NCBI RefSeq assembly: GCF_009708215.1
Contig: NZ_CP046175.1
Span: forward strand, 496,001 to 560,000
Length of the DNA: 64,000 bases
From: Occultella kanbiaonis
GTDB lineage: Bacteria; Actinomycetota; Actinomycetes; Actinomycetales; Beutenbergiaceae
Direction of reading: 5' to 3'
The position numbers were made by a program, and so were the translations under genes. Position 1 is the first letter of the stretch. Each line of letters starts with the position of its first letter. The notes beneath the pieces were generated by a model. The model was not told the DNA's origin and did no database searches. It saw only the letters and a program-made list of their open reading frames with translations. Below, piece after piece: positions 11,822 through 26,528 of this stretch.

Positions 11822-12300
11822 GCCGGGGCTCCGTTCGGGTACCAGGTCAGGTACATCTCGCGCGTGTGGAACAGGTCGAACTCGTCGACGTAGTCCGCCT
11901 GGACGCCGTCACCGGCGATGCCCGTCATCAGCAGCAGGTCCATGAACCCATGCGTGGCATTGCCCGCGCCCGCCATCGACTCGTGGGTCACGTTCGCCAG
12001 GATCGCGTCGATGTTCCCTGTTGCGAGCCACTCGATCGCGTTCCGGTCGAACTCCGGGTCCGGGCCGTGCTCACCGAACTGGCGTGGTCCGCCGAGCTCG
12101 AGGGACAGGTGGCCGGTGCCGATCGCCGCCACCCGCAGGTCCGAGGGGTAGGCGTCGATGATCTCCCGGATCGCCCGGCCGACCTGCCAGAACCGTCTCG
12201 GCGACGGCATCGGTGGCGCGAAGATGTTCGTGTAGATCGGCACCACCGGCAGGTCCGCCCCGGGCCGCACGGTGACGATCGGGCAGATGATCGGGCACAG
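11818..12300 (-). pseudogene. Truncated LigB-type extradiol dioxygenase catalytic subunit (C-terminal part)
   Basis: The last ~160 residues of a LigB-type dioxygenase are readable (from about TVRPGADLPVVPIYTN through AAIGTGHLSLEL to HTREMYLTWYPNG). Family members are roughly 270-300 residues, so the N-terminal half, with metal-binding histidines, is missing. The frame stays open beyond 12300, but there the sequence is the antisense of an amidohydrolase fragment. The break is at about 12277-12305, where a 12-bp imperfect tandem (GATCGGGCAGAT/GATCGGGCACAG, 12277-12300) sits. It is read as a deletion remnant. Confidence 0.7.
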
Positions 12301-12738
12301 GACGTCGTCGGCTGGGCCACCCGCGGTGGCGCACGTACCCTCGGGCTGGACTCCGCCGTCGGGAGCCCGGAGCCGGGCAAGAAGGCGGACGTCGTGCTGA
12401 TCAAGAACGACGACTCGCCTGTGATGTTCCCGGTGCTGCACCCATACGGGCACATCGCGTTCCAGGCCCAGCGGGGCGACGTGCACACCGTGGTCGTGAA
12501 TGGCCGGGTGCTCAAGCACGAGCACCGCCTGCTCGGCACCGACCTCGCGAAGGCGCGCACCGCCGTCGAGCAGACGGTCGAACACCTGCGCACCACCCTC
12601 GGCGAGGACGAGTGGCGCCAGGGGATGAGCCCGGAGATCCCCGAGTCGAAGGTGCTCGACAACCCCTACATGTACACCGACTACGCGGACGACTCGACGC
12701 ACCGCGCGTGCGGTGTGCGCACGCCGCTGCGCCACTGA
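12289..12738 (+). pseudogene. Truncated amidohydrolase (C-terminal fragment)
   Basis: About 148 codons match the end of TrzA/AtzB/cytosine-deaminase-type amidohydrolases: ATRGGARTLGLDS then GSPEPGKKADVVLI (the beta-sandwich return), and VVVNGRVLKHEH. Such enzymes are about 450 residues and their metal-binding barrel would lie before this point; it is absent and no start codon with ribosome site is apparent. It lies head-to-head with the truncated LigB, so one deletion could have removed both 5' halves and the shared promoter. The native stop at 12736 is followed by a strong hairpin. Confidence 0.75.
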
Positions 12739-12777: not shown

Positions 12778-13464
12778 TCACTCGGGCCGGTCCGACTCGG
12801 TCGGCAGCTCGAGCTGGCGCAGGCGTGTGTAGGCGCCGCTGAGATGGTCCTCGGCGGCGGCCCGGGCGAGGACCGGGTCGCCCTGCGCGAGGGCCATCCG
12901 GAGTTCGTAGTGCTCGGGATACCCGACGGTCGGGAAGTCGGGGAAGTTCACGTTCCGGGTGTGCAGGAAGAAGAACACCTGGCTGCGGATGGAGACCCAC
13001 GCACGGCTGAGCCGCTGATGGTCCGCCGCGTCATACAACACGTCATGGAAGGCGAGGTCCAGTCGGACCGCCTCCTGCGGGGCGACGGATCCGGAGGTCT
13101 CCTTCATCGCGTCGAGCACCCGGTCCAGTTCCGCGAAGTGGGCAGGCGTCATTCGCGTTGATGCGCGTTCGGCGGCAAGGGACTCGATGGCGGCGCGAAA
13201 GGTGTGCACCTCCTCCACGTCCACCTGGGTGAGCACGCTCACGAACGCGCCGCGATGGCGCCGGATCTCGACCTGCCCCTCGGACTCGAGGAACGCCAGG
13301 GCCTCGCGCACCGGACCGCGGCTCACGTCCAGGCTGGCGGCGAGCTCCATCTCGCGCAGGTGCTGACCGGGCGCGAGCACGCCGGTGGCGATCTGCTCAC
13401 GGAGCACCGCCAACACGTACTCGGCCATGGACGTCCGGGGCGGAGAGTTCCCGGTGTCGATCAC
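12778..13464 (-). CDS. GntR-family regulator (FadR/FCD subfamily)
   Basis: A 228-residue regulator. A winged-helix N-terminal domain is visible (REMELAASLDVSRGPVREAL, about residues 36-55), followed by an all-helical FCD ligand domain (histidines and aspartates in RLDLAFHDVLYDAADH). FCD regulators sense small organic acids or sugars and usually repress divergent catabolic genes. GTG start at 13464 with GGGAGG upstream. The divergent neighbour is the GH39 operon, whose promoter carries two 19-bp repeats with ATTG-N-CAAT cores. It could equally have served the decayed dioxygenase/amidohydrolase pair downstream. Confidence 0.88.
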   Translation of the reverse strand: MIDTGNSPPRTSMAEYVLAVLREQIATGVLAPGQHLREMELAASLDVSRGPVREALAFLESEGQVEIRRHRGAFVSVLTQVDVEEVHTFRAAIESLAAERASTRMTPAHFAELDRVLDAMKETSGSVAPQEAVRLDLAFHDVLYDAADHQRLSRAWVSIRSQVFFFLHTRNVNFPDFPTVGYPEHYELRMALAQGDPVLARAAAEDHLSGAYTRLRQLELPTESDRPE

Positions 13465-13682: not shown

Positions 13683-13724
13683 TTGAAGATCATTGACAAT
13701 CACGATTGAAGATCATTGACAATC
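13683..13724 (+). repeat. Tandem 19-bp direct repeats (probable regulator binding sites)
   Basis: TTGAAGATCATTGACAATC occurs twice without mismatch at 13683-13701 and 13706-13724, 23 bp apart (about two helical turns). Each copy contains ATTG-A-CAAT, an odd palindrome resembling FCD-GntR half-sites. The second copy embeds the -35 TTGACA of the GH39 promoter. Confidence 0.75.
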
Positions 13725-13805: not shown

Positions 13806-15533
13806 GTGAACTTCACCGCTGAAGTCAACCCAGGTGTGGGACTGGACAAGAGTTCCTTCCCGCACGCCGCGCCCAGCGACCCGAATGCGCCGCACGTCCG
13901 TGCGGCCGAGGTGACCATCGACGCCGCCGTGGACCGCGGCGCGCTCGCCCGGATCTGGGAGAGCATCGGATACGACGAGATCAACTGGACCTACACCCCC
14001 ACGGGGCGCTCCCTGCTCGGCCGGTTCGGTGAGCTGAGCGACAAGGGCTTCCACGTGCGCCCGCACTACGTGTTCTGCTCGGGCACCGGCTTCGGGATCC
14101 CGCACTGGGGCACCGGCAACGTTTTCCACCTCGACGCCGACGGGAACGCGTTCTACGACTTCACCATCGCCGACCAGGTCTACGACGCGATCGTCGAGTC
14201 CGGCAACCACGTGCTCGTCGAGCTCGCCTTCACGCCGCGCGACCTGGTGCCCGATCACGCCGCCGAGCTCGAGGTGGTGCCCAGTCCCACCGTGTACAGC
14301 AACTACGAGGCCGGCGCCTGGGGCTACCCGCCCAAGGACTACGCCGCCTGGGGCGAGCTGATCGCCGCCCACGCCCAGCACTGCCTGGACCGCTACGGCG
14401 CCGACGAGGTCGACACCTGGCTCTGGGAGCTGTGGAACGAGCCGGACATCTTCTACTGGCGTGGCACCCCCGAGGAGTTCTACGAGCTCTACTCGGTGAC
14501 GGCGGCCGCGGTCCGGCGCGTGCTCCCGACGGCGAAGGTCGGCGGCCCGGCCGTCACCGGCTCCGGTGCCGAGTTCCTCCGCGGCTTCCTCGCCCACACC
14601 AGCGCGCGCAAGGATCCGCTCGACTTCGTCTCCTTCCACACCAAGGGGTCCGCGTTCCGCCCGTGGCGCGTCTACGGGCCCACCGGCGGTCCGGCGCCGG
14701 AGCAGCAGAGCCCGAGCGCACACAAGATGCTCTTCGAGATCCGCACCCTGTCCCGCGTGATCGAGGAGTTTCCCGAGTACCACGGCCTGCCCGCCATCGT
14801 CGACGAGTGTGACGCCGGGGTCCCGGCCCACTACAGCGTCTACGACAACGCGAACTTCCGGTTCCAGAACACCGAGTACTACCCGGTGTTCCAGGTCAAG
14901 CTCATGAAGAAGATCCTCGACCTGAACGCCACCGAGACCGTGCAGGTCGAGCAGGCGACCTCGTGGAGCTTCTACTTCGAGGGCGAGCGCTACTTCGAGG
15001 GCACCCGCGCGTTCCTGACCGCCGGCGGAGTGGAGAAGCCGTTCCTGAACGCCTACCGGGCACTGGCGCGGCTCGGCGAGCGCCGCGTCGAGGCCGGTTC
15101 TGACGTGGCCCACCCGGTCACGGCCCTGGACGACTGCGGTGGTGCCAGCATGCCGGAGGAGGTCGACGTGCTCGCCTCCCGGGCCACGGACGGCACCGTG
15201 GCAGCGCTCGTCTGGCGGCACATCGACGACCAGTACCACGCGGACGACACCGAGGCCGCTGTGAACGTGAACATTTCCGGCCTGGACGGCGCCGCCTACA
15301 CGCTGCGGCACTACCGGATCGACGCCACCCACTCCAACGCGCACACGATCTGGGAGGGGCTCGGCTCCCCGCAGCTGCCCACGGACGACCAGCTTGCCGC
15401 GATCAAGGCGCGGCAGGGACTCGAGGAGTTCGAGGCCGCCCACGACGTGACGCCCGTCGACGGCGCGGCGCAGGTTGCTCTCCGCCTGCCGCTGCCGTCG
15501 GTGTCGTTGCTGGTGTGGGAGCCGAAGGCATGA
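13806..15533 (+). CDS. GH39-like glycoside hydrolase (beta-xylosidase family)
   Basis: A 575-residue clan GH-A (beta/alpha)8 hydrolase with a C-terminal beta-sandwich, resembling GH39 beta-xylosidases. The acid/base motif LWELWNEPD places Glu212, and VDECDAG places the likely nucleophile at Glu334 (numbering from 13806). There is no signal peptide, so it cleaves an imported glycoside in the cytoplasm. The start is uncertain: GTG 13806 was preferred, with ATG 13776 and GTG 13767 possible. It heads an operon with an aldo/keto reductase (ATGA overlap), an importer and a tetrulose-type pathway, suggesting the aglycone or sugar released feeds that pathway. Confidence 0.82.
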   Translation: MNFTAEVNPGVGLDKSSFPHAAPSDPNAPHVRAAEVTIDAAVDRGALARIWESIGYDEINWTYTPTGRSLLGRFGELSDKGFHVRPHYVFCSGTGFGIPHWGTGNVFHLDADGNAFYDFTIADQVYDAIVESGNHVLVELAFTPRDLVPDHAAELEVVPSPTVYSNYEAGAWGYPPKDYAAWGELIAAHAQHCLDRYGADEVDTWLWELWNEPDIFYWRGTPEEFYELYSVTAAAVRRVLPTAKVGGPAVTGSGAEFLRGFLAHTSARKDPLDFVSFHTKGSAFRPWRVYGPTGGPAPEQQSPSAHKMLFEIRTLSRVIEEFPEYHGLPAIVDECDAGVPAHYSVYDNANFRFQNTEYYPVFQVKLMKKILDLNATETVQVEQATSWSFYFEGERYFEGTRAFLTAGGVEKPFLNAYRALARLGERRVEAGSDVAHPVTALDDCGGASMPEEVDVLASRATDGTVAALVWRHIDDQYHADDTEAAVNVNISGLDGAAYTLRHYRIDATHSNAHTIWEGLGSPQLPTDDQLAAIKARQGLEEFEAAHDVTPVDGAAQVALRLPLPSVSLLVWEPKA

Positions 15534-16387
15534 CGACGGCGGCGCTCACCTCGTTGGATCGGCGCACCATGCTGCCGGGTGGGGTCGAGATCCCCCAGGT
15601 GGGCCTCGGCGTCTTCCAGGTGCCGACGGCGCAGGCGCAGCGGGTGGTCGAGGAGGCCCTCGAGGTCGGGTACCGCCACGTCGACACCGCGGCCGCGTAT
15701 GTGAACGAGGAGGGGGTCGGCGCCGCGCTCGGGTCCGCGGGGCTGCCGCGCGAGGAGGTGTTCATCACCTCGAAGCTCCGGAACGGTGACCAGGGCTATG
15801 AGAGTGCCCTGCGCGCCTACGACGACACCCTCGCCCGGCTCGGCCTGGAGGCCCTTGACCTGTACCTGATCCACTGGCCGAACCCGGCCGCCGGGCTGTG
15901 GCAGGACAGCTGGCGGGCGCTCGAACGGATCCTGGACGAGGGGCGGGTCCGCGCGATCGGCGTCTCGAACTTCATGGTCGAGCACCTGCGCGAGCTCCTC
16001 GGCCGAGCCGAGCACGTGCCGGCCGTGAACCAGATCGAGGTCCATCCGACCTTCGCTCAGTCGGACCTTGCCGGCTTCTGCGCAGAGCATGCGATCACGG
16101 TGCAGGCGTACTCCCCACTCGGGCAGGGCGCCGATCTGTCCGCCCCCACGGTCACCGCGATCGCGGACCGGCTCGGGGTCACCGCCGCCCAGGTGGTACT
16201 CCGCTGGCACCTGGATCGCGGCCGGGTGGTGATCCCGAAGACCACGTCCCGAGCTCGGATGGTCTCCAACGCGGACCTCGACGGCACCGACCTCACCGAC
16301 GACGACCTGGCGGGCCTGGACGCCCTGGAGACGGGAGTGCGGATCGGCAACGACCCGCGCACCTTCGCACTCAGCCAGATCCGCTGA
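15530..16387 (+). CDS. Aldo/keto reductase
   Basis: A 285-residue NADPH-dependent reductase of the AKR (beta/alpha)8 family. The catalytic tetrad is readable: Asp in VDTAAAY, Tyr in the same segment, Lys in ITSKL and His in LIHWPNP. The C-terminal cofactor motif VIPKTTSRARM is present. It overlaps the GH39 stop by ATGA, so the two are co-translated; it probably reduces the aldose released by the glycosidase to an alditol, or acts in reverse on an alditol. Substrate not determinable from sequence. Confidence 0.88.
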   Translation: MTTAALTSLDRRTMLPGGVEIPQVGLGVFQVPTAQAQRVVEEALEVGYRHVDTAAAYVNEEGVGAALGSAGLPREEVFITSKLRNGDQGYESALRAYDDTLARLGLEALDLYLIHWPNPAAGLWQDSWRALERILDEGRVRAIGVSNFMVEHLRELLGRAEHVPAVNQIEVHPTFAQSDLAGFCAEHAITVQAYSPLGQGADLSAPTVTAIADRLGVTAAQVVLRWHLDRGRVVIPKTTSRARMVSNADLDGTDLTDDDLAGLDALETGVRIGNDPRTFALSQIR

Positions 16388-16418
16388 CCCCGACCCGACA
16401 CCCGATGGAGCGTGTTCG

Positions 16419-17387
16419 ATGGCGACACAAGTAATGCCGGTGCGAGAAATTCGCACCGCGGCACCCGCAGCGCCACCATCGCCGGCCCGGCGCCGGCGCG
16501 AGCGGAAACGCAACCTCTGGATCTACGCCTTCCTGCTGCCCACGTTCATCCTCTACGGGATGTACACGCTGTACCCGATCGTGGCCAGCTACTGGTACTC
16601 ACTCGTGGAGTGGAACGGGTTCTCCGCGGACCAGCGATTCGTGGGCCTGGACAACTACGAGGCCGTCCTCGCGGACCCGCTGTTCTGGTCCTCGGTACGG
16701 GTCACGCTCCTGTTCATGCTGATCGTTGCCCCGCTGCGGGTGTTCGGCGCGTTCGCCCTGGCGATCCTGCTGAACTCGCCGCGGTTGCCGTTCAGCTCGT
16801 TCTTCCGGACCGCCTACTTCCTGCCAGTGGTGACCACCACAGCGATCGTCGGCGTCGTGATGCGGTTCATCCTCGACCCGGCGAGTGGCCCGGTTGCATC
16901 GGTGCTGCAACTCTTCGGGCTCGGCCCGGTCGATCTGCTCGGCTCATCCTCGACCGCCCTGCTGACCGCCGGCGTGATCTACGTGTGGAAGTTCTTCGGC
17001 ATCACGATGATCTACTGGCTGGCCGCGCTCCAGACGATCCCCAAGGATCTGTACGAGGCCGCGCGGATCGACGGCGCCGGTGCGCTCAAGCTGTTCCGGC
17101 ACATCACGCTGCCGCTGCTCATCCCGTTCCTGCTGATCATCTCCGTGCTGACGATCGAGGACTGCTTCCACGCCTTCGACCTGATGCAGTCGATGACGGC
17201 CGGCGGCCCGTTCTTCAGCACCGAGATCATCGAGATCTACATCTACCGATGGGCGTTCGCGGCCACGATCCCTCAGCTCGGGTTCGCCTCGGCCGCAGCG
17301 GTCCTGTTCGGCATCATCGTGCTGGTCGTGGTGATCGCCCAGGTGTGGGCCACCATGGTCTCCCGGCGGCTGCGGGCGCGAGCATGA
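16419..17387 (+). CDS. Sugar ABC transporter permease (MalF type)
   Basis: A 322-residue permease with about six helices. The EAA loop reads LYEAARIDGAGALKLF followed by HITLPLL. The ATG at 16419 has GGAG eight bases upstream. It is paired with the permease at 17384 (ATGA overlap) and the binding protein at 18307, in the GH39 operon. No ATPase is encoded nearby. Confidence 0.9.
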   Translation: MATQVMPVREIRTAAPAAPPSPARRRRERKRNLWIYAFLLPTFILYGMYTLYPIVASYWYSLVEWNGFSADQRFVGLDNYEAVLADPLFWSSVRVTLLFMLIVAPLRVFGAFALAILLNSPRLPFSSFFRTAYFLPVVTTTAIVGVVMRFILDPASGPVASVLQLFGLGPVDLLGSSSTALLTAGVIYVWKFFGITMIYWLAALQTIPKDLYEAARIDGAGALKLFRHITLPLLIPFLLIISVLTIEDCFHAFDLMQSMTAGGPFFSTEIIEIYIYRWAFAATIPQLGFASAAAVLFGIIVLVVVIAQVWATMVSRRLRARA

Positions 17388-18256
17388 GCGCCACGACCGC
17401 GTCGACCGGCTCGCGGACCTGGAGCCGGTTGCGGAGCCGGATGCCCTGGTGGGTCCTCGTCCTGTTGCTCACTGTGCTGGCATTCATCTGGGTCTTCCCG
17501 TTCATCTGGATGGTCTCGGCCTCGCTCAAGACCTCTGCCGAGATCTTCGGCGGCGGACTGAATCTCATCCCCGAGACCCTGCAATGGGAGAACTACGTCC
17601 GAGCCTGGCAGGACGGGAACTTCCGGGTCTACCTGCTGAACACGGTGATCGTCACGGTCGCGACCGTCGCGATCGTGGTCGCCAGGTGTGCCCTGGCCGG
17701 CTATGTGCTCGGCCGCTACCGGTTCCCCGGGTCGCGTCTGGTGATCGGGATCCTGGTGGCCACCCTGTTCGTGCCCACCGGCTACACGATCATTCCGATC
17801 GTCAAGATCTCTCTCGAACTGGGACTGCTGGACCAGCTCGGCGGCATGATCCTGGCCCTGGCCGGCGGTGCGAACGTGGCCGCGATCCTCATCTATGCGG
17901 GGTACTTCCGGGGCATGCCGGCCGAGCTCGAGGAGGCTGCCATCGTCGACGGCGCGGGCTTCCTGCGCACCTTCGCACGCATCATGCTGCCGCTGTCCAT
18001 GCCGGTCACGGCGACGGTCGGCATCCTCACTTTCCTGTTCACCTGGAACGCCTTCTTCCTGCCCCTGGTCTTCTCGTTCAGCAACCCTGCGCTGCGCACG
18101 GTGAGCGTGGGCATGCAGGCGTTCGTGGGCGAGAACTCCACCGACTGGCCCGGCATGGCCGCCGCAGGCGTGATCTCGCTGCTGCCGATCGTCGTGCTCT
18201 TCGCCTTCATGCAGCGCTACTTCATCGAAGGCATCGCGGGCGCCGTCAAGTCCTGA
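17384..18256 (+). CDS. Sugar ABC transporter permease (MalG type)
   Basis: A 290-residue permease with six predicted helices and the EAA-loop region LEEAAIVDGAGFLRTF. The ATG overlaps the stop of the first permease. The C-terminus FIEGIAGAVKS is typical of MalG-type subunits. It is the second subunit of the importer feeding the GH39/tetrulose operon. Confidence 0.9.
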   Translation: MSATTASTGSRTWSRLRSRMPWWVLVLLLTVLAFIWVFPFIWMVSASLKTSAEIFGGGLNLIPETLQWENYVRAWQDGNFRVYLLNTVIVTVATVAIVVARCALAGYVLGRYRFPGSRLVIGILVATLFVPTGYTIIPIVKISLELGLLDQLGGMILALAGGANVAAILIYAGYFRGMPAELEEAAIVDGAGFLRTFARIMLPLSMPVTATVGILTFLFTWNAFFLPLVFSFSNPALRTVSVGMQAFVGENSTDWPGMAAAGVISLLPIVVLFAFMQRYFIEGIAGAVKS

Positions 18257-18306
18257 CGGGCCCGCCTGAACCCTCAACCCCCCCAATCTCAACGAGGAGA
18301 ATCCCC

Positions 18307-19743
18307 ATGTCCCGAACAGCACTCAGCCGCCGCCACTTCATGGGCGGCGTCGGACTCACCGGCATGGCCGGCCTGTTGGCCGCGTGCGGCGGCGAGAGCC
18401 CACCGCCCGGACCCGGCGGCGGTGGTGGCGACGCCGGCTCGTTGCGCTGGTGGGATCACCTTGGCGGCCTGCAGGACCTGCACGACGAGTGGGCCGTGAC
18501 CCAGGGCGAGTCGCTCGGGGTCACCATCGAGCACACCTACAACGAGCCGGGCAAGGCCACCGAGGCCCTGCAACTGGCCAACCAGAGCAACCAGCTCCCG
18601 GACGTCTACTCCCCGGTGATCGGGCTGCCGCTGCCGGCGCTTGTGGAAGCGGGGTGGGTCCAGGCGATCACCGTCTCCGACGACGTCATCGCCCGGCTGC
18701 CGGAGGGCACCTTCGTCGAAGGGCTGTCCATGCTCGACGGCGTGATCTACGGGCTCCCGGCGTTCACGGACAAGCAGTACGTCGCCTGCACCTGGTACAA
18801 CGCGGAGATCGCCGACGAGGTCGGCTTCGACCCGCCGAAGAGCTATGACGACTTCCTCGCCGCGCTGCGCGCGATCGCGGAGCACGGCGAGTACGCACCG
18901 ATGACCATCGCACTCGGCGCTGTCGGCCGGATGCGCGAGCAGATCGACGACCTCGCGCAGGCCGGCGGCTTCCCAGGATTCATGGGGCTGCGATTCGACA
19001 CCGGCGAGTACGAGTACCACCACGACGCCTACGTCAACGCCATCGAGCTGTACAAGGAGATCTCGGAGAACGGCTGGCTGTTGCCGGGCACGAACGGGTT
19101 CCAGATCCCCGACGCGCGTGGGCGGTGGGCCGCCGGAGGGATCGGGTTCCACATCGACGGCCCCTACTCACCCGGCGCGGTGCGGTCGCTGAACGCGGAC
19201 ATGTTGCCCAACATGGCCGTCGCCGGGATGCTCACGCCGGACGGCGAGGACGTCGTCGCGACGAAGGGTGCCCGCGGCGGCGACTGGGTGATCGGCGGCA
19301 CCAGCGAGCTCGCCGAGATCGCGAGCCGCTTCGTGGAGACGTTCACCCAGGACGACTACCAGACGGCGCTGGCCACCGGGATGGACCAGCCCCCGTTGAA
19401 CCTGGACGTGGTCGCGGACGCAGACGTCATCGAGCCGTACGCGTGGCTGGTCGATGACTTCCGGGCGCGGGTGTTCCGGGCCCCTCAGCCGCAGGTTCGC
19501 AACGTCGACGTGACGCAGGTCCAGGCCCGGCAGGCACCGGTGGCGCCTGAACTCGGCAACGTGATCCAGGGCTACCTCGGTGGCGAACTCACCGACCTGC
19601 GCGCCGAACTGACCAAGCTGAGCGACGCCTACTCGGCCGCGCTGGACGAGGCCATCGCCGGTGCTACCGGCGAGGGCGCGAACGTGAGCCGGGCCGACTG
19701 GGAGTTCCCGGACTGGCAACGCGGCGTGGACTACACCTACTGA
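18307..19743 (+). CDS. Sugar ABC transporter binding lipoprotein (Tat-type signal)
   Basis: A 478-residue solute-binding protein. The N-terminus has the twin-arginine-like SRRHFMGG followed by a hydrophobic core and lipobox GLLAAC, then a Gly/Pro-rich linker. ATG at 18307 has GAGGAG upstream. It is longer than the 413-residue protein of the first operon, in keeping with a different ligand. Position after the permeases in the operon suggests it binds the substrate of the GH39 enzyme, perhaps a glycoside of a short polyol; this is inference. Confidence 0.9.
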   Translation: MSRTALSRRHFMGGVGLTGMAGLLAACGGESPPPGPGGGGGDAGSLRWWDHLGGLQDLHDEWAVTQGESLGVTIEHTYNEPGKATEALQLANQSNQLPDVYSPVIGLPLPALVEAGWVQAITVSDDVIARLPEGTFVEGLSMLDGVIYGLPAFTDKQYVACTWYNAEIADEVGFDPPKSYDDFLAALRAIAEHGEYAPMTIALGAVGRMREQIDDLAQAGGFPGFMGLRFDTGEYEYHHDAYVNAIELYKEISENGWLLPGTNGFQIPDARGRWAAGGIGFHIDGPYSPGAVRSLNADMLPNMAVAGMLTPDGEDVVATKGARGGDWVIGGTSELAEIASRFVETFTQDDYQTALATGMDQPPLNLDVVADADVIEPYAWLVDDFRARVFRAPQPQVRNVDVTQVQARQAPVAPELGNVIQGYLGGELTDLRAELTKLSDAYSAALDEAIAGATGEGANVSRADWEFPDWQRGVDYTY

Positions 19744-19796
19744 CCTGCATGCACGCACAGTCCACCGACACCAACTGAGAGGACAGGGACCACACC

Positions 19797-20564
19797 ATGG
19801 GCGTCTTTCCCACCGAACGCACCGCGGTCATCACCGGGGCCGGATCCGCCCGAGGCATCGGGCGGGCCACCGCGCACCGGCTCGCCGCCGAGGGCTGGAG
19901 CCTCGGGCTCGTCGATATCGACGGCCCCGCCGTCGAGTCGCTCGCGACCGAGTTGACGCAGACGCACGGGGTCGCGGCGGTGGGCCACCGGGTCGACGTG
20001 AGCGACCCGGACGACGTACGCACCGCCGTCGGGAAGCTCGAGGCGGAACTGCCGCCGCTGCTGGCGCTCGCGAACGTGGCCGGGGTCAGCTCCCCGACCC
20101 CGTACCTGGAGCTTCCGGACGAGGAGTGGACCCGCGTGATGCGGGTCAACCTCGACGGCGTCCACTACGTCAGCAAACGCGTCGCCGAGTCGATGGCAGC
20201 CCGGGGCGTCGGCCGCATCGTGTCGATCTCGTCGGTCTCCGCACAGCGGGGTGGGGGTACCTACTCCAAGACCCCGTACTCCGTGGCGAAGGCCGGCGTG
20301 ATCGGGCTGACCAGGGCGCTCGCCCGCGAGCTCGGGCCGTACGGGATCACGGTGAACGCGATCTGCCCGGGCCCGATCGACACCGACATCATGGGCGGCA
20401 CCCTCACCGAGGAGCGCAAGCGGGAGCTGGTCGCGGAACTCCTGGTCGACCGGGTCGGCACCACGGCGGACATCGCCGCCGCGATCAGCTTCCTGCTCGG
20501 CCCGGACGCGGGCTACATCACCGGCCAGACGTTGAACGTCGACGGCGGCCTCTACATGCACTGA
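19797..20564 (+). CDS. Short-chain dehydrogenase (tetritol/polyol dehydrogenase-like)
   Basis: A 255-residue classical SDR. The NAD site TGAGSARGIG, the NAG-like segment ANVAGV, the catalytic Ser in SISSVSAQ and YSVAK (Tyr/Lys) are present, as is the GGLYMH end. In Mycolicibacterium smegmatis an SDR (D-threitol dehydrogenase) starts the D-threitol pathway beside a DhaK-like kinase and RpiB/TPI-like isomerases; the same set follows here. Oxidation of a C4 polyol to erythrulose is therefore likely, but other polyols cannot be excluded. Confidence 0.88.
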   Translation: MGVFPTERTAVITGAGSARGIGRATAHRLAAEGWSLGLVDIDGPAVESLATELTQTHGVAAVGHRVDVSDPDDVRTAVGKLEAELPPLLALANVAGVSSPTPYLELPDEEWTRVMRVNLDGVHYVSKRVAESMAARGVGRIVSISSVSAQRGGGTYSKTPYSVAKAGVIGLTRALARELGPYGITVNAICPGPIDTDIMGGTLTEERKRELVAELLVDRVGTTADIAAAISFLLGPDAGYITGQTLNVDGGLYMH

Positions 20565-20599
20565 CGGCACCCGCCGTCCGTGCTCAGGGAAGGAACACA

Positions 20600-21574
20600 G
20601 TGCGCACCATCACCACCGTGGCGGTCATCGGGTCCGGGTACATGGGCGGCGGGATCGCCCAGACGCTCGCGGACGCGGGCCTGGCCGTGCGGATCGCGGA
20701 CGCCACCGCCGACCGGGCCAGGGCCGCGCACGCGCGGATCCTGGCGGAGGCCGCCGAGCTCGAGGCGTCGGGCCTGATGCCCGCCGGCCATGCCGGGCGG
20801 GTCCGAGACAACCTCACCTGGAGCGAGTCGCTCCCGGCGGCGGTCGACGGCGCCGACTTCATCGAGGAGGCGGTGCCGGAGGACCCGGACACCAAGCGCC
20901 GGGTCCTCGCCGAGATCAGCGCCGCGGCAGCTCCCGCGGCGCTGATCGGGACGAACACCTCGACGATCCCGCTCGCCCGGCTCGCCGACGCGGTGAGCCA
21001 CCCGGACCGGTTCCTGGTGGTCCACTTCAGCAACCCCGCGCACCTCGTGCCCGGCGTGGAGCTGGTGGCCGGGGCACAGACCGCGGACTCGACCGTGGCG
21101 GCCATCCGGACCATGCTCACCGGGATCGGCCGACCGAGTGCCGTGGTCGCGGACGCGCCCGGCTTCGTCCTGAACCGCGTGCAGTACGCGATGGTGAAGG
21201 AAGCCCTGCTGATCGTGCAGGAGGGGCACGCGAGCCCGGAGGACGTGGACACCATCCTGCGCTCAACGCTCGGGTTCCGGGCCGCGTTCTTCGGGCCGCT
21301 CGCGATGCTGGACATGGCCGGCCTCGACGTCTACGCCGACTCCTTCCGGCTGCTCGCCGACGCGCTCGGGGACAGGTTCACCCCGCCGGAGATCCTCACG
21401 GACGCGGCGGACGCGGGCCGGCACGGCATGAAGAACGGTGCCGGATTGTGGCGCGACTACACCGACCAGGACACCGGCGCCATCCAGGCCTGGCGGGCGC
21501 AGGCCTACTCGCGGATGAGCGCCCTGCTCGCCGACCTCCCCCCGGCTCCCACCCTGACCAGGAGAACGGCATGA
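20600..21574 (+). CDS. 3-hydroxyacyl-CoA-dehydrogenase-like NAD(P) enzyme
   Basis: A 324-residue two-domain dehydrogenase of the 3-hydroxyacyl-CoA dehydrogenase/lambda-crystallin/L-gulonate 3-dehydrogenase superfamily. The Rossmann motif VIGSGYMGGG is at residues 8-17; the catalytic-region signature HFSNPAHLVPGVELV and the C-terminal-domain entry PGFVLNRVQYAM are seen. In a sugar operon an acyl-CoA substrate is unlikely; a 3-hydroxy sugar acid or branched sugar acid is more probable. GTG start with AGGGAAGGA upstream. It overlaps the TIM-barrel gene (ATGA). Confidence 0.82.
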   Translation: MRTITTVAVIGSGYMGGGIAQTLADAGLAVRIADATADRARAAHARILAEAAELEASGLMPAGHAGRVRDNLTWSESLPAAVDGADFIEEAVPEDPDTKRRVLAEISAAAAPAALIGTNTSTIPLARLADAVSHPDRFLVVHFSNPAHLVPGVELVAGAQTADSTVAAIRTMLTGIGRPSAVVADAPGFVLNRVQYAMVKEALLIVQEGHASPEDVDTILRSTLGFRAAFFGPLAMLDMAGLDVYADSFRLLADALGDRFTPPEILTDAADAGRHGMKNGAGLWRDYTDQDTGAIQAWRAQAYSRMSALLADLPPAPTLTRRTA

Positions 21575-22515
21575 CGGCGCCGTTCACGGCCGACACCTGG
21601 CCGATCGGCGTCGGCCTGCCCCAGCTCGTCGGCACCCTGTCCGACGGCCGCGACGTCACCACGACCGGCCCGCAGGCCTGGCGGCCGACCTTCCACGAGG
21701 TCGCCGCGGCCGGCTTCACCGAGATCGACCTGTTCACCACCTTCATCCGGATCTCCGACCTGGACGACGACGGCCGCGGCGGCCTGCAGCGACTGCTCAC
21801 CGAGTACGGCCTGCGGATCAGCGCGATCCCGCTCGCGCGCCGCAGCATCCTCGATCCGGACCCCGACCGCGCCGCCGCCAACCTGGAGTTCGCCCTCGAT
21901 ACGGTGCGGGCCGCCGGAGAACTCGGCGTCGGCACCGTCTGCGTCGGACTGCACCAGCCACTGACCACCGAGCAGCAGCGGGCGGAGTGGTTCTGGCTCG
22001 CCCCCGGCGAGGAGAACCCGGAGGACCCCGCGGTCTGGGCGGCCGCCGTCGACGGCTTCCGCCGGATCGGCGAGGAGGCGGCGCGGGCCCAGGTCCAGGT
22101 CTCCCTGGAGATGTACGAGGGCACCTACCTGGGGACGTCGGAGAGTTCGGTGCGACTCGTCACCGACATCGGGCTGCCCAACGTGGGCCTGTGCCCGGAC
22201 ATCGGCAACATCGTCCGACTGCACCGGCCCGTCGAGGACTGGCGGGTGATGCTCGAACGGATGCTGCCCTACGCCAACTACTGGCAGCTGAAGAACTACC
22301 TGCGCGACCACGACCCGGCCACCGGTGCCTACTTCTCGGCGCCGGCGCCGCTGGAGACCGGCTACATCGACTACCGGACCGCCGTCGGGATGGCCCTGGC
22401 GGCCGGCTTCTCCGGCCCGCTGTGCGTGGAGCACTACGGCGGCGACGGGCTGAGCGTGGCCGCCACCAACCGTGACTACCTGCGCCGCATCCTCGCGGCG
22501 AAGATCGCGAGCTGA
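21571..22515 (+). CDS. Xylose-isomerase-superfamily TIM barrel (sugar phosphate isomerase/epimerase)
   Basis: A 314-residue AP-endonuclease-2/xylose-isomerase-type barrel. Likely metal ligands are visible in SLEMYEG (Glu), GLCPDIGN (Asp) and CVEHYGG (Glu/His). Brucella EryC, the tetrulose-4-phosphate racemase, belongs to this superfamily and works with TPI-like EryH and RpiB-like EryI, the homologues of which end this operon. An isomerase or epimerase acting on a tetrulose or its phosphate is thus a reasonable inference; a dehydratase or an enzyme for a branched sugar is the alternative. Confidence 0.78.
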   Translation: MTAPFTADTWPIGVGLPQLVGTLSDGRDVTTTGPQAWRPTFHEVAAAGFTEIDLFTTFIRISDLDDDGRGGLQRLLTEYGLRISAIPLARRSILDPDPDRAAANLEFALDTVRAAGELGVGTVCVGLHQPLTTEQQRAEWFWLAPGEENPEDPAVWAAAVDGFRRIGEEAARAQVQVSLEMYEGTYLGTSESSVRLVTDIGLPNVGLCPDIGNIVRLHRPVEDWRVMLERMLPYANYWQLKNYLRDHDPATGAYFSAPAPLETGYIDYRTAVGMALAAGFSGPLCVEHYGGDGLSVAATNRDYLRRILAAKIAS

Positions 22516-22516
22516 C

Positions 22517-24259
22517 ATGACCCACCTCGTCAACGACCCGAAGACGTTCGCCGCGGACGTCCTCACCGGCTTCGCCCGGGCGCACGCCGACCGGGTCCGG
22601 GAGGTGTCCGGCGGCGTGGTCCGGGCCGCCCCCGCGCCGCCCGGGAAGGTCGCGGTGGTGCTCGGCGGCGGGTCCGGGCACTACCCCGCCTTCGCGGGGT
22701 GGGTGGGGGACGGGATGGCCGACGGCGTCGTGTGCGGCAACATCTTCGCCTCGCCCTCCGCGGACCAGGCCGTCACGGTGATCCGCGCCGCGGACCGCGG
22801 CGCCGGGGTGCTGCTCGGCTTCGGCAACTACGCCGGGGACCAGCTGCAGTTCGGTCAGGCGGCCCAGGAACTGCGAGCGGACGGCATCGACGTGCGGATC
22901 GTCACCGTGACCGACGACCTCGCCTCGGCCACCGAGCCGGAGCAGCGCCGGGGTATCGCCGGCGACCTGATCGTGTTCAAGATCGCCGGCGCCGCTGCGG
23001 CCGCCGGCGCGGACCTGGACGAGGTCGAACGCGTCGCGACCCGGGCCAACGCCCGCACCCGCACCATCGGGATCGCGCTCGCCGGATGCACCCTGCCGGG
23101 CCAGGACGAGCCGCTTTTCACCGTCCCGGCGGGCCGGATCGCCCTCGGCCTCGGCATCCACGGCGAGCCCGGCCTGAGCACCGAGGATCTCGGCAGCGCG
23201 AGGGAGGTCGCCGACGACCTGGTCGACCGGATCCTCGCCGAGGCGCCAGAGGACGCCGACCGGGTCGCCGTCCTGGTCAACGGTCTCGGCGCCACCACCC
23301 ACGAGGAACTGTTCGCCGTGTACGGCCGGGTGGCCGATCGGCTCACCGCGGCCGGCCTCGTGATCGTCGCCCCCGAGGTCGGCGAACAGGTGACCAGCCT
23401 GGACATGGCGGGCCTGTCCCTGACCGTCACCTTCCTCGACCCCGAGCTCGAGCGCCACTGGACGGCGCCCGCGGACACGCCCGCGTTCCGTCGTGGTCGG
23501 CCCGACCCGATCCGGACGGTCGACGGGCCTGCCGTCGCAGACCCGCCCGTGGAGACGCTCACCCCGGCGCCCAGCGCGACGGCCGTGGCTCCCGGCACGG
23601 AGGACTCCCGACGGGCGACCGAGGAGGTGCTGCGCACCGCCGCGGCGATCGCCCTCGCGCTCACCGAACACGAGGCGGAGCTCGGCCGGCTGGACGCCGT
23701 GGCCGGCGATGGCGATCACGGGCAGGGCATGGTGCTGGGCATCGGCGGCGCGGTCCGTGCCGCCGAACGGGCGCACCTCGCCGGGGCCGGCCTCGGAGAC
23801 GTCCTCGACGCCGCCGGCCGGGCCTGGTCGAACGCCGCCGGTGGCACGTCGGGGGCACTGTGGGGTGCGGCGCTACGGGCCGCCGGCGCCGAGGTCGGCA
23901 ACGAGCGAGCCCCGGATGCCGCAGGCCTCGCCCGCGCCGTGGATCGCGCCGTCACCGCTGCCGCCGACCTGGGCGGCGCCCGGGAGGGCGACAAGACCGT
24001 CATCGACGCGGCGGTGCCGTTCGCCGCCCAGCTGCGCTCCGCCGTCGGGCAGGGCACGGCGGCGCCCGCCGCGTGGGCGAGCGCGGCGACCGCGGCCGAG
24101 GAGGCCGCACGCGGCACGGCCGCACTCACGGCCCGGCTCGGCCGGGCCCGCACCCATGGCGAACGCGCGCGCGGTCACGCGGATCCGGGTGCCATCTCGT
24201 TCGCGCTCGTGGTCGGCACGGTCGCGCAGTCATCGACGGTCTCAGCGGAGGAATCATGA
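22517..24259 (+). CDS. DhaKL-type kinase (erythrulose/dihydroxyacetone kinase)
   Basis: A 580-residue ATP-dependent kinase with fused DhaK (about 1-330) and DhaL (about 360-580) domains. DhaK has [15 protein letters not shown] and the substrate-anchoring histidine His215 in GIHGEPG; DhaL has the metal-binding DGDHGQGM. The DAK family includes the D- and L-erythrulose kinases of M. smegmatis as well as dihydroxyacetone kinases. The company of an SDR, RpiB-like and TPI-like isomerases favours erythrulose. It is cytoplasmic, and its stop overlaps the RpiB-like start (ATGA). Confidence 0.88.
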
Positions 24260-24714
24260 ACTGGCGGATCGCGGTCGGTGCGGACAGCGCCGGCTACCAC
24301 TACAAGGAAGCCCTCAAGCGTGACCTGGAGGCCGACCCGCGGGTCCTGGAGGTGATCGACGTCGGCATCGTGGAGGGGGATGGCACGGACTACCCGCACG
24401 TCGCGCTCGACGCCGCTCAGCTGGTGGCCGACGGCCGCGCCGACCGGGCGCTGCTCGTCTGCGGGACCGGGCTCGGCGTCGCGATCTCGGCGAACAAGGT
24501 CCCCGGCGTCCGGGCCGTCACCGCGCACGACTCCTACTCGGTGGAACGGTCGGTGAAGTCGAACAACGCCCAGGTGCTCACCTTCGGGGAGCGGGTGATC
24601 GGGCTGGAGCTCGCCCGCCGGCTCGCCTCGGAGTGGCTCGGGTACACGTTCGACGGCGAATCCCCCTCCGCGGCGAAGGTCGCCGCCATCACGGCGTACG
24701 AGCGTCGTGACTGA
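24256..24714 (+). CDS. RpiB/LacAB-family sugar phosphate isomerase (tetrulose-phosphate isomerase-like)
   Basis: A 152-residue isomerase. [15 protein letters not shown] starts the Rossmann-like fold and [16 protein letters not shown] carries the catalytic Cys and phosphate loop. In the erythritol and threitol pathways RpiB homologues (EryI; DerI1/DerI2) convert the 4-phosphate of D-erythrulose to D-erythrose 4-phosphate, which enters the pentose phosphate pathway. A second RpiB at 44364 stands outside any catabolic operon and may be the housekeeping copy. Strong ribosome site GCGGAGGAA within the kinase 3' end. Confidence 0.88.
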
Positions 24715-25444
24715 GTTCTGGGTCGGCACCAGCTGGAAGATGACGAAGACGCTCGCGCAGGCGCGCGAGTTCGCCCGCGGGGTCGGGGCGCGTGCGGACT
24801 GGCCGGTGCGCCCGTTCGTCGTGCCGCCGGCCACCGCGCTGGCCGCCGTCGCCGCCGAGCTCGGGCCGGCGTCCCCGGTACGCGTCGGTGCGCAGGACGC
24901 GCACTGGGAGGACGCCGGAGCCTGGACCGGGGAGGTCTCGGTGCCGCAGGTCGCCGACGCCGGTGCGACGATGCTCGAGATCGGGCACTCCGAGCGGCGC
25001 GAGTACTTCGGTGAGACCGACGAGCGGGTCAACCTCAAGGTGCTGGCCGCCGTCCGGCACGGCCTACTCCCGCTGATCTGCGTCGGCGAGTCGGCCGACG
25101 TGCGCCGGACCGGTGGTGCCGCCGAGTTCGTCGCGGACCAGGTCCGCGCGGCCCTCGCCGCGGTCCCGGACGCGGCGCCGGTGCTGATCGCGTACGAGCC
25201 GATCTGGGCGATCGGGGCAGCCGGCCGACCGGCCCGGCCCGAGGCCGTGGCCGAGATGGCGGTGGTGATAGCCGCCGCGGCGGGTACCCGGGCGACCGTG
25301 CTCTACGGAGGTTCGGTGAACCTGGGCAACGCGGTGGAACTGGCCCGGGTGCCCGGGATCGGTGGACTGTTCATCGGGCGGGCCGCCTGGGAGGTGTCCG
25401 ACTACCTGTCCATCGTGGACGCGGTGGGCGATCTCGTCGGCTGA
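24707..25444 (+). CDS. TPI-like isomerase (EryH/LerI type)
   Basis: A 245-residue triosephosphate-isomerase-fold enzyme with all catalytic residues: Lys11 in TSWKMTK, His94 in IGHSERREY, Glu164 in AYEPIWAIG and the phosphate loop YGGSVN. Canonical TPIs begin with NWKMN; SWKM is the form seen in the tetrulose-phosphate isomerases (Brucella EryH, mycobacterial LerI), as far as I recall. The operon context supports isomerisation of an L-tetrulose phosphate to the D form handled by RpiB-like enzymes. GTG start overlaps the preceding gene by 8 bp; last gene of the operon. Confidence 0.85.
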
Positions 25445-25977: not shown

Positions 25978-26007
25978 TACAATCGTGAGTATGCCAAGTA
26001 TTACGAT
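25978..26007 (+). promoter_or_regulatory. Leaderless -10 and dyad at toxin-antitoxin start
   Basis: TACAAT (25978-25983) ends 7 nt before the antitoxin ATG (25991), placing +1 at the start codon. A dyad ATCGT-N16-ACGAT (25982-26007) spans the start and may be where the RHH antitoxin autoregulates. No clear -35 was found. Confidence 0.4.
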
Positions 26008-26221
26008 CCGTACCGACGACCAGGTCGAGCGAGCGCTGGCCGAACTGACCAGCCGCGGCTCCAATCGTTCGGACGTGGTCCGGCGGGCGATCCTCGAGCT
26101 GGCGCGAACGGAGCACGCGGCGGCGCTGCGCGCGGAAGCCGAGGCCCTACGCGACGATCCGGACGACGCTGCCGCAGCAAAGGCTCTTGCGCATGAGATG
26201 GGCGGGATCAGTGCGTGGTGA
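25991..26221 (+). CDS. Ribbon-helix-helix antitoxin (MazE/CopG-like)
   Basis: A 76-residue protein with a typical RHH DNA-binding N-terminus: beta strand PSITIRTDDQ then helices ERALAELTSRGSNRSDVVRR. The acidic C-terminal tail (EALRDDPDDAAA) would wrap around the toxin. It is followed, with an 11-bp overlap, by a MazF-like gene, the normal antitoxin-toxin order. It probably neutralises that toxin and represses the pair. Confidence 0.85.
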   Translation: MPSITIRTDDQVERALAELTSRGSNRSDVVRRAILELARTEHAAALRAEAEALRDDPDDAAAAKALAHEMGGISAW

Positions 26222-26528
26222 CGTCTACGAACTGAAGGCACCCCGGAACGCGCGAGGGCACGAGCAAGCCGGCCGACGGTTCGCCGTCGTGCTCCAGTCC
26301 GATGATCTCCCGCTGTCCACCTGGGTGGTCGCGCCAACGTCCACGGGGCGGCGTGCGGCGTCCTTCCGGCCGGAGATCAGCATCGCCGGCTCACCGACCC
26401 TGGTGCTCGTCGAACAGTTGACGGCGGTGGATCCAGAGCTCAGGCTCGGGGCCCGGGTCGGGAGACTGACCCGAGGCGAGATGACCCGTATCGACGGGGC
26501 TGTGGCCGACCTGCTGGGCCTGGGCTGA
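26211..26528 (+). CDS. MazF/PemK-family toxin
   Basis: A 105-residue protein with the MazF/PemK barrel: VRGDVYELK at the N-terminus, RRFAVVLQSDDL, WVVAPTSTG and LVEQLTAVDPELR. MazF proteins are sequence-specific endoribonucleases that cut mRNA, or in actinobacteria sometimes tRNA or rRNA. GTG start at 26211 inside the antitoxin gene ensures coupled translation. The set of expected motifs appears complete, so it is probably active. Confidence 0.85.
   Translation: MRGDVYELKAPRNARGHEQAGRRFAVVLQSDDLPLSTWVVAPTSTGRRAASFRPEISIAGSPTLVLVEQLTAVDPELRLGARVGRLTRGEMTRIDGAVADLLGLG

What the first reader, a model, noticed from the sequence alone, without database searches (positions are those of the whole stretch)
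13806..25444. GH39-linked tetrulose-phosphate operon: possible uptake and breakdown of a C4-polyol glycoside
One run of twelve same-strand genes joins a cytoplasmic GH39-like hydrolase and aldo/keto reductase to an importer, an SDR, a hydroxyacyl-CoA-dehydrogenase-like enzyme, a xylose-isomerase-type barrel, a DhaKL kinase, an RpiB-like and a TPI-like enzyme (SWKM). The SDR, kinase, RpiB-like and TPI-like set matches the erythritol/threitol pathways of Mycolicibacterium smegmatis; the barrel, RpiB-like and TPI-like enzymes match Brucella EryC/EryI/EryH. I know of no such pathway with a glycosidase at its head, so the real substrate may be a glycosylated tetritol or a branched sugar such as an apioside.
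Basis: partly seen in the sequence, partly recalled or inferred. Interest (0 to 1): 0.78.

Follow-up and report, generated by a model that had tools for sequence, protein, structure and literature searches.

The report
Sugar-acid-to-erythrose-phosphate operon with glycosidase
A soil-type actinobacterium carries one operon that appears to import a plant-type glycoside, cut it with a xylosidase-like enzyme and turn a five-carbon sugar acid into a four-carbon sugar phosphate; the last three enzymes resemble known ones, but the two that come before them have no assigned function.

Summary
The operon is real: 11 same-strand genes (not 12), 13806-25444, tightly spaced, with a divergent GntR regulator. 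The tetrulose-phosphate half of the reading holds for the TPI-like enzyme: it is closest to a solved L-erythrulose-1-phosphate isomerase and groups with the TPI of a Paracoccus erythritol locus, not with canonical TPI. The kinase and RpiB-like enzyme are consistent with it but unproven. The barrel (XIB) is not similar to the one EryC-type protein compared. Across 87 loci XIB sits with the DhaKL kinase in 77 and with one of three unrelated dehydrogenases in 76, often with acid permeases. An apionate-type cluster is a separate locus in 4 of 24 XIB genomes or records. Best reading: the 3HCDH-like enzyme oxidises a C5 aldonate, XIB decarboxylates the 3-oxo acid to erythrulose, and LerK/LerI/DerI-like enzymes deliver erythrose 4-phosphate; GH39, ABC, AKR and SDR are an add-on that supplies the sugar. 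The substrate is unproven; an L-pentoside is my leading guess, against which 11 of 11 genomes checked also have AraA and 5 of 11 checked lack a LerI-type isomerase. I found no published route of this kind, but key papers were not held.

The parts
12778..13464 (-). GntR/FCD regulator, divergent from the operon
   Evidence: Pfam GntR + FCD above cut-off; conserved in L014, L015, L017, L019
13683..13724 (+). Two direct copies of TTGAAGATCATTGACAATC (13683-13701, 13706-13724), candidate GntR operator overlapping a TTGACA (13716) / TAGCCT (13740) promoter-like pair with an 18-base spacer
   Evidence: by eye both copies recognisable in L014, one in L015, TTGACAATCTG alone in L017 and L019; function inferred
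13806..15533 (+). GH39 family glycoside hydrolase, 575 aa, catalytic glutamates E212 and E334 by alignment
   Evidence: Pfam PF01229 159.3 bits; best solved relatives are beta-xylosidases, E about 5e-37
15530..16387 (+). aldo/keto reductase, DkgA/DkgB-like
   Evidence: NCBIfam DkgA 263.9 bits, below its cut-off of 425
16419..17387 (+). ABC sugar permease 1
   Evidence: ORF and resemblance only; not submitted to a family search
17384..18256 (+). ABC sugar permease 2
   Evidence: ORF and resemblance only; not submitted to a family search
18307..19743 (+). substrate-binding lipoprotein of the importer (RR motif and LLAAC lipobox by eye); no ATPase gene in the run
   Evidence: Pfam SBP_bac_8 59.2 bits, cut-off 27
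19797..20564 (+). SDR oxidoreductase; 65-69% identical to the SDR next to the core in Arthrobacter-type XIB loci
20600..21574 (+). 3-hydroxyacyl-CoA-dehydrogenase-like enzyme (HAD), proposed beta-hydroxy-acid dehydrogenase
   Evidence: Pfam 3HCDH_N + 3HCDH; NCBIfam FHMPC_DH 229.3 bits, below its cut-off of 500
21571..22515 (+). xylose-isomerase-type barrel (XIB), proposed 3-oxo-acid decarboxylase; 5TNV family
   Evidence: Pfam AP_endonuc_2 98.4 bits; 5TNV 243.6 bits; E180, D210 and E287 the same in 82 of 82 sequences, position 239 Q in 16 and H in 66
22517..24259 (+). fused DhaK-DhaL kinase, proposed tetrulose kinase (LerK-like)
   Evidence: Pfam Dak1 + Dak2; NCBIfam 'dihydroxyacetone kinase family protein' 709.8 over its cut-off of 492; HGEPG motif; solved relatives all named dihydroxyacetone kinase
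24256..24714 (+). [quoted passage not shown]
   Evidence: NCBIfam RPI_actino 193.6 over 168.2 and ribose-5-phosphate isomerase B NF004051 142.9 over 135; DerI model 153.1 under 240; nearest solved relatives are putative ribose-5-phosphate isomerases
24707..25444 (+). [quoted passage not shown]
   Evidence: 11ef 237.8 bits; tree and SWKM motif; NCBIfam NF000722, named triose-phosphate isomerase, 324.8 over its cut-off of 293

Best explanation
Two modules have been joined. The core (20600-25444) turns a C5 sugar acid (an aldonate) into erythrose 4-phosphate. The 3HCDH-like enzyme oxidises the C3 hydroxyl with NAD, XIB decarboxylates the resulting 3-oxo acid to erythrulose and CO2, the DhaKL kinase phosphorylates erythrulose, the TPI-like enzyme converts L-erythrulose 1-phosphate to D-erythrulose 4-phosphate, and the RpiB-like enzyme makes D-erythrose 4-phosphate. 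The front module (13806-20564) supplies the substrate: an ABC importer brings in a glycoside, cytoplasmic GH39 releases a pentose, and the SDR and/or AKR oxidise or adjust it to the aldonate. Shown by sequence: gene families, GH39 catalytic residues, relation of the TPI-like enzyme to L-erythrulose-1-phosphate isomerase, conservation of the core, dissimilarity of the barrel to an EryC-type protein. Inferred: the C5 acid, oxidation at C3, decarboxylation by XIB, kinase and RpiB substrates, and the roles of SDR and AKR. Because an L-erythrulose-phosphate type of isomerase is present, the pentose is more likely of the L series at C4 (L-arabinose first guess).
For: XIB occurs with DhaKL in 77, RpiB in 52 and TPI in 45 of 87 loci, and is directly followed by the kinase on its strand in 62 of the 80 loci where my caller placed an XIB gene. 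In 76 of 87 loci it has one of three unrelated dehydrogenases (39 3HCDH-like, 33 PdxA-like, 4 HIBADH-like at 60% identity or more), never two at the thresholds used; all three families act mainly on beta-hydroxy acids (recalled). 40 of these 76 loci carry TTT or GntP permeases, as expected for acids. In five loci of genomes from the genus of the Mycobacterium record L029, with barrels 88-95% identical to 5TNV, the layout is GntP-HAD-XIB beside a divergent kinase set, with no other dehydrogenase in the set. The barrel next to PF16896 in the apionate-type loci is weakly similar to XIB (E about 2e-6 in a seven-sequence set) while the EryC-type protein is not. A GntR/FCD gene separates SDR from the 3HCDH-like gene in L017 and, by cluster, L019; L016/L018 have the core without GH39, AKR or that SDR. 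The four genomes of 394 with this GH39 all have a strong XIB (19 of 394 do), two of them unlinked: Fisher p = 3.9e-6; without the window's genus 2 of 2, p = 0.0018, uncorrected for phylogeny. Other HAD-XIB loci carry arabinofuranosidase ArfA over its cut-off (L091, L168) or GH127 (L047). LerI, DerI and LerK functions: PMC10733421, passages.
Against: No enzyme has been assayed. XIB could be an isomerase rather than a decarboxylase; 5TNV carries no assigned function in the data I saw. The kinase's solved relatives and curated model are dihydroxyacetone kinases, and the RpiB-like protein passes ribose-5-phosphate models but not the DerI model. The SDR occurs in loci whose transporter may import the acid directly, so it need not be an aldose dehydrogenase, and L047/L091 have glycosidases but no aldose dehydrogenase recognised nearby. 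AraA is in 11 of 11 genomes checked, the window's included, so L-arabinose already has a standard route. Of 11 XIB genomes checked, five (G205, G206, G451, G447, G511) have only a canonical-clade TPI; G205, G206 and G451 have HAD-XIB-kinase-RpiB, and G451's locus has an arabinofuranosidase, so an L-series product would be stranded there. The solved GH39 relatives are D-xylosidases. At lower thresholds some loci hold a second dehydrogenase: HIBADH-like in L024 and L060 (39-47%), 3HCDH-like in L043 (30%), HIBADH-like beside an OtnK-type gene in L165 and L169 (53-57%). 11 of 87 loci have none of the three.
Confidence: 0.52

Rival explanations
1. Apiose route: GH39 frees D-apiose from an apioside, SDR/AKR make D-apionate, the 3HCDH-like enzyme acts as an oxidoisomerase in place of ApnO, and XIB decarboxylates 3-oxo-isoapionate to L-erythrulose (OiaC role; names recalled from Carter 2018, not read).
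For: Same downstream enzymes and same L-erythrulose product as the recalled OiaC route; XIB is distantly similar to the barrel beside PF16896; a glycosidase and LerI-type isomerase fit an apioside. PMC11747546 (passages) lists apiose enzymes in another bacterium.
Against: PF16896 is absent from 20 of 24 XIB genomes or records searched, the window's genome among them (two of the 24 are plasmid records only). Where present it sits with its own barrel, and in L123-L125 with its own kinase and isomerases, on another contig than XIB. P. terrae (G202) has both the window-type operon and a PF16896-barrel pair. The 3HCDH-like enzyme shows no significant similarity to the PF16896 protein (E = 0.2 in a four-sequence set). 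None of the ten proteins scanned matches the ApnL model.
Confidence: 0.17
2. Tetritol glycoside route: GH39 frees erythritol or threitol, SDR oxidises it to erythrulose, then kinase and isomerases act.
For: SDR + kinase + RpiB-like + TPI-like could suffice, as with the tetritol enzymes EltD/LerK/LerI/DerI (PMC10733421, passages).
Against: It leaves the 3HCDH-like enzyme and XIB, the latter the kinase's usual neighbour, unused; XIB is not similar to the EryC-type protein compared; an SDR at 45% identity or more is in only 28 of 87 XIB loci; the SDR scores 151.7 against the GolD/DthD-family cut-off of 286.
Confidence: 0.1
3. D-series pentose route: GH39 is a true beta-xylosidase, D-xylose becomes D-xylonate, then 3-oxo-D-xylonate and D-erythrulose; the TPI-like enzyme handles a side isomer or is not essential.
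For: The seven solved GH39 relatives below E = 1e-25 are all beta-xylosidases; five of 11 XIB genomes checked have no LerI-type TPI; 4 of 4 HIBADH-type loci have RpiB and no TPI nearby (one of these genomes, G212, has a non-canonical TPI in its apionate-type locus).
Against: The window keeps the LerI/EryH-type isomerase, which D-erythrulose 4-phosphate would not need.
Confidence: 0.14

Closest known systems
M. smegmatis tetritol enzymes LerK / LerI / DerI (PMC10733421 and PMC12780249 passages; Huang 2015 recalled, not held)
   Same: DhaKL-type kinase, TPI-like and RpiB-like isomerases giving erythrose 4-phosphate
   Different: Here the tetrulose is proposed to come from a decarboxylated C5 acid (3HCDH-like + barrel), not from a tetritol, and a glycosidase and importer head the run
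D-apionate / 3-oxo-isoapionate decarboxylase route (Carter 2018, recalled; L123-L125 look like it)
   Same: Dehydrogenase, then xylose-isomerase-type barrel, then kinase, RpiB-like and TPI-like enzyme
   Different: Different dehydrogenase family (PF16896 against 3HCDH) and different barrel (25-28% identity over about 140 residues); separate locus in the same genomes
Brucella/rhizobial erythritol pathway EryABC, EryH, EryI (seen here as the Paracoccus locus L128, named by its gene set)
   Same: TPI-like EryH clade and RpiB-like partner
   Different: No FGGY kinase, no EryB-like gene in the run, and the barrel is not similar to that locus's barrel
Non-phosphorylative pentose pathways (Weimberg/Dahms type; PMC6336799, listing only)
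   Same: Oxidise a pentose to the aldonate before breaking it; distant GH39 homologues in L006/L008 sit by IlvD, DHDPS, Gfo and amidohydrolase genes
   Different: Those dehydrate the aldonate to 2-keto-3-deoxy acids; none of those genes is in this run

Membership tests
[quoted passage not shown]
   11ef 237.8 bits against 172.4 for the next hit; same clade as the TPIs of L127 and L128, SWKM motif. NCBIfam still calls the matching model triose-phosphate isomerase
[quoted passage not shown]
   needs an assay
[quoted passage not shown]
   NF051858, a rhizobial model by its name, 153.1 against 240; RPI_actino 193.6 against 168.2 and NF004051 142.9 against 135 are met
L-erythrulose kinase (LerK) | Clusters with LerK apart from dihydroxyacetone kinases | not tested
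   no kinase tree was built; solved relatives are all dihydroxyacetone kinases
EryC | Sequence similarity of the barrel to EryC | tested here: not met
   E = 2.1 against the barrel of the Paracoccus ery-type locus, the only EryC-type protein compared
Apionate pathway (ApnO/ApnL/OiaC) | PF16896-type oxidoisomerase in the operon or genome (family assignment recalled) | tested here: not met
   no match in G000
Apionate pathway (ApnO/ApnL/OiaC) | ApnL lactonase in the operon | tested here: not met
   none of the ten proteins scanned matches the ApnL model; the two permeases were not scanned
GH39 | GH39 family match with both catalytic glutamates | tested here: met
   PF01229 159.3 bits against 26; E212 and E334 aligned, invariant in 8 of 8 sequences aligned, the window's included
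GH39 | Substrate specificity (beta-xylosidase, arabinosidase or other) | not testable with these tools
   needs an assay

The most novel reading that the evidence does not exclude
XIB founds a family of 3-oxo-aldonate decarboxylases that funnels C5 sugar acids into erythrulose; three unrelated dehydrogenase families feed it, and in this operon it forms a further oxidative route for plant L-pentosides (such as L-arabinosides), ending in erythrose 4-phosphate with loss of CO2. The acid-importing versions might use L-xylonate and L-lyxonate from ascorbate breakdown.
Probability: 0.3. Interest if true: 0.74.

Novelty: new variant of a known kind. Interest (0 to 1): 0.55.

Why it matters
If right, it assigns a function to the structure 5TNV and to a barrel family found strongly in 19 of 394 sampled genomes of the window's class and in 93 plasmid records, mostly rhizobial. 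It would explain a recurrent kinase-isomerase cluster that current models name dihydroxyacetone kinase, ribose-5-phosphate isomerase and triose-phosphate isomerase, and add a pentose or pentonate route that enters metabolism at erythrose 4-phosphate. It also warns that a DhaKL + RpiB + TPI set does not by itself mean tetritol use.

Tried and rejected
EryC identity of the barrel: rejected on one EryC-type sequence (E = 2.1). Canonical TPI or a simple dihydroxyacetone pathway (C4 acid to dihydroxyacetone): set aside as main reading because RpiB and the LerI-type TPI would be superfluous and a canonical TPI is elsewhere. ApnO/OiaC membership: tested through PF16896 and its contexts, not met. AraA absence as an argument for an arabinose route: tested and failed, AraA is in 11 of 11. 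GH39 context in other genomes as a guide to substrate: two further genomes carry it alone or split, uninformative about chemistry. Paper searches: 'apionate' gave one paper, 'apiosidase' 20 (listing only); an over-wide 'anywhere' search returned noise; Carter 2018, Huang 2015 and Barbier 2014 are not held; pentonate and erythrulose terms gave 81 papers with at least two of six terms, 25 listed, of which four counted erythrulose at all and none of those four was opened. I did not run structure prediction and built no kinase tree.


Full report
What is there. The window lies at G000:C1:496001-560000 of a 5.65 Mb genome; its nearest named relatives are Occultella gossypii and O. glacieicola (barrel 96% identical). 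On the + strand 11 genes run from 13806 to 25444: GH39, aldo/keto reductase, two ABC permeases, a substrate-binding lipoprotein, an SDR, a 3HCDH-like dehydrogenase, a xylose-isomerase-type barrel (XIB below), a fused DhaK-DhaL kinase, an RpiB-like and a TPI-like isomerase (the permeases by resemblance only). Intergenic distances run from -8 to +53 bases. A GntR/FCD regulator is divergent. The 341-base gap in front of the GH39 gene holds two 19-base direct copies of TTGAAGATCATTGACAATC overlapping a promoter-like pair.

Which enzymes are what they look like. GH39 has its two glutamates in place (8 of 8 sequences). The seven solved relatives below E = 1e-25 are all beta-xylosidases. The TPI-like protein is nearest to 11ef, deposited as L-erythrulose-1-phosphate isomerase, by 65 bits over the next hit. 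In a tree of 68 TPI-type sequences (FastTree, midpoint root, support values not shown) it lies with the TPI of a Paracoccus ery-type locus (L128, named by its gene set), with a Pararhizobium TPI beside RpiB (L127) and with two TPIs of L112/L114, while the genome's own second TPI (L094) groups with NWKM-type TPIs of other genomes. A third clade (mostly GVSxK or AVSLK) accompanies Arthrobacter-type, some PdxA-type, the GH127 and the apionate-type loci. The RpiB-like protein passes two ribose-5-phosphate isomerase models but not the DerI model, and the genome has two more RpiB genes, one at window 44364-44819. The kinase passes the 'dihydroxyacetone kinase family protein' model; its solved relatives are dihydroxyacetone kinases. 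It is 45% and 37% identical to the genome's two other DhaK proteins over their aligned parts and 45-93% to XIB-linked kinases, so identity alone does not settle its substrate. XIB has one strong solved relative, 5TNV of M. smegmatis (organism recalled), whose molecule name is only 'AP endonuclease, family protein 2'.

Where XIB occurs. Using identity thresholds set, DhaKL is in 77, RpiB in 52 and TPI in 45 of 87. A 3HCDH-like dehydrogenase is in 39, a PdxA-like one in 33, a HIBADH-like one (60% or more) in 4, none of the three in 11, two in none. Below these thresholds L024, L029 and L060 hold HIBADH-like genes at 39-47% and L043 a 3HCDH-like one at 30%, so the exclusion is not absolute. TPI accompanies 31 of 39 3HCDH-like loci, 12 of 33 PdxA-like loci, 0 of 4 HIBADH-like loci and 2 of the 11 others. 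PdxA loci mostly carry a TTT importer; GntP occurs with HIBADH-like and some 3HCDH-like loci; Pfam confirmed GntP in L112; 21 3HCDH-like loci have an MFS transporter that I did not classify further. In the genus of the Mycobacterium record L029 a strong XIB (46% or more identical to 5TNV) is in 18 of 198 genomes, 15 of them at 88-95%. In the five of these 15 that I read, the layout is GntP-HAD-XIB with a divergent kinase set (RpiB or TPI not called in two of the five) and no other dehydrogenase in the set. This pattern is most simply read as acid in, oxidation, loss of one carbon, tetrulose, phosphorylation, isomerisation. The step from C5 to C4 needs a decarboxylase, and XIB is the best candidate. 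That is inference.

Two modules. In L017 and L019 (Pseudactinotalea) a regulator lies between the SDR and the 3HCDH-like gene; the L017 one is GntR/FCD by Pfam, and the L019 one is in the same cluster. In L016 (Ruania) and L018 (Actinotalea caeni) the core stands without GH39, AKR or SDR. So GH39-AKR-ABC-SDR is a front module attached to a core. The association looks real: of 394 class genomes, four have this GH39 at E <= 1e-60 and all four have a strong XIB, against 19 of 394 overall (Fisher p = 3.9e-6; without the window's genus p = 0.0018; I take the two searches to have used the same 394 genomes, as size and handles agree; no correction for phylogeny). In G423 the two genes are about 1.9 Mb apart, and in G421 they are on different contigs.

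Other glycosidases beside the core. L091 (Microbacterium oleivorans) has ArfA (702.6 bits, cut-off 625) and GH3; L168 has ArfA (726 bits) behind the core; both have a protein with two esterase stretches nearby; L047 has GH127. L044 has a levoglucosan-dehydrogenase-like Gfo, another barrel, ThuA and a second Gfo, and L050 the same clusters. Distant GH39 homologues (34-36%) in L006/L008 stand beside IlvD, DHDPS, Gfo and amidohydrolase genes; the L006 IlvD scores 667 bits against the L-arabinonate dehydratase model, under its cut-off of 882. These lean towards pentosides, with arabinose the commonest hint.

Why not apiose or a tetritol. PF16896, which I recall as the family of D-apionate oxidoisomerase, was found in 4 of 24 XIB genomes or records and not in the window's. 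In three of the four its gene lies with a kinase, RpiB, TPI and a different barrel; L125 adds a protein whose only NCBIfam match is D-apionate lactonase ApnL (197.6 bits, under the cut-off of 750), plus an SDR. L126, in P. terrae, has only the PF16896-barrel pair without kinase or isomerases in the 17.5 kb read, while that genome also has the window-type operon. This looks like the recalled apionate route as a separate locus. A tetritol would not need the 3HCDH-like enzyme or XIB.

Results against the leading guess. AraA was found in 11 of 11 genomes tested. Five of 11 XIB genomes (G205, G206, G451, G447, G511) have only a canonical-clade TPI; the first three have the 3HCDH-like core. So the L configuration cannot be general. 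No aldose dehydrogenase was recognised near the glycosidases of L047 or L091. The SDR and AKR roles are open. I put 0.52 on the general scheme and about 0.3 on the L-pentoside version of it.

A further lead. Six of 107 XIB loci longer than 8 kb hold an OtnK-like (3-oxo-tetronate kinase) gene (some of the 107 are second copies of the same place). PMC11066805 (one passage; abstract start) reports that ascorbate breakdown yields L-lyxonate and L-xylonate besides the C4 acid L-threonate. These C5 L-acids would give L-erythrulose by the proposed chemistry. That fits the acid-importing versions but is untested.

Literature. PMC10733421 (passages) gives the roles of EltD, LerK, LerI, DerI and EryC; PMC12780249 (passages) summarises the two tetritol pathways; PMC11747546 (passages) lists apiose enzymes. 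Carter 2018, Huang 2015 and Barbier 2014 are not held, and what I say of them is recalled. I found no paper describing the 3HCDH-like + XIB route in searches, but these cover open-licence papers only, and I saw only listings of most hits.

Noticed in passing
window 11456-12738: LigA-like and LigB-like ORFs on the - strand beside the GntR gene; the LigB stretch overlaps on the other strand an amidohydrolase-like C-terminal fragment, which may be a deletion scar. Read by eye.
   Followed up: no
window 44364-44819 (+): A second RpiB-family gene in the window (37% identical to the operon's RpiB).
   Followed up: partly
window 25991-26528 (+): Small antitoxin-like and MazF-like ORFs downstream of the operon, by eye.
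   Followed up: no
L023: A record titled Vibrio cholerae strain 35D carries a 57% identical XIB cluster with Arthrobacter-like order; perhaps a mislabelled or contaminated assembly.
   Followed up: no
L171 and L173: XIB near nucleoside-type genes: an adenosine-deaminase family gene in L171, a Bmp-type binding protein and a nucleoside hydrolase in L173 (Pfam); L171 has kinase and RpiB without TPI. Suggests a nucleoside-derived sugar acid.
   Followed up: partly
L044 and L050: Core preceded by levoglucosan-dehydrogenase-like Gfo, another barrel, ThuA and a second Gfo (families tested in L044): possibly an oxidative deglycosylation front end instead of a hydrolase.
   Followed up: partly
window 21571-22515, residue 239 of XIB: Position 239 is Q in 16 of 82 XIB sequences, the window's among them, and H in 66; it may lie where related barrels have a metal-binding His (recalled).
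   Followed up: partly
L197 (9086-10818): A GH39 homologue split over two overlapping frames in G421; described only.
   Followed up: no
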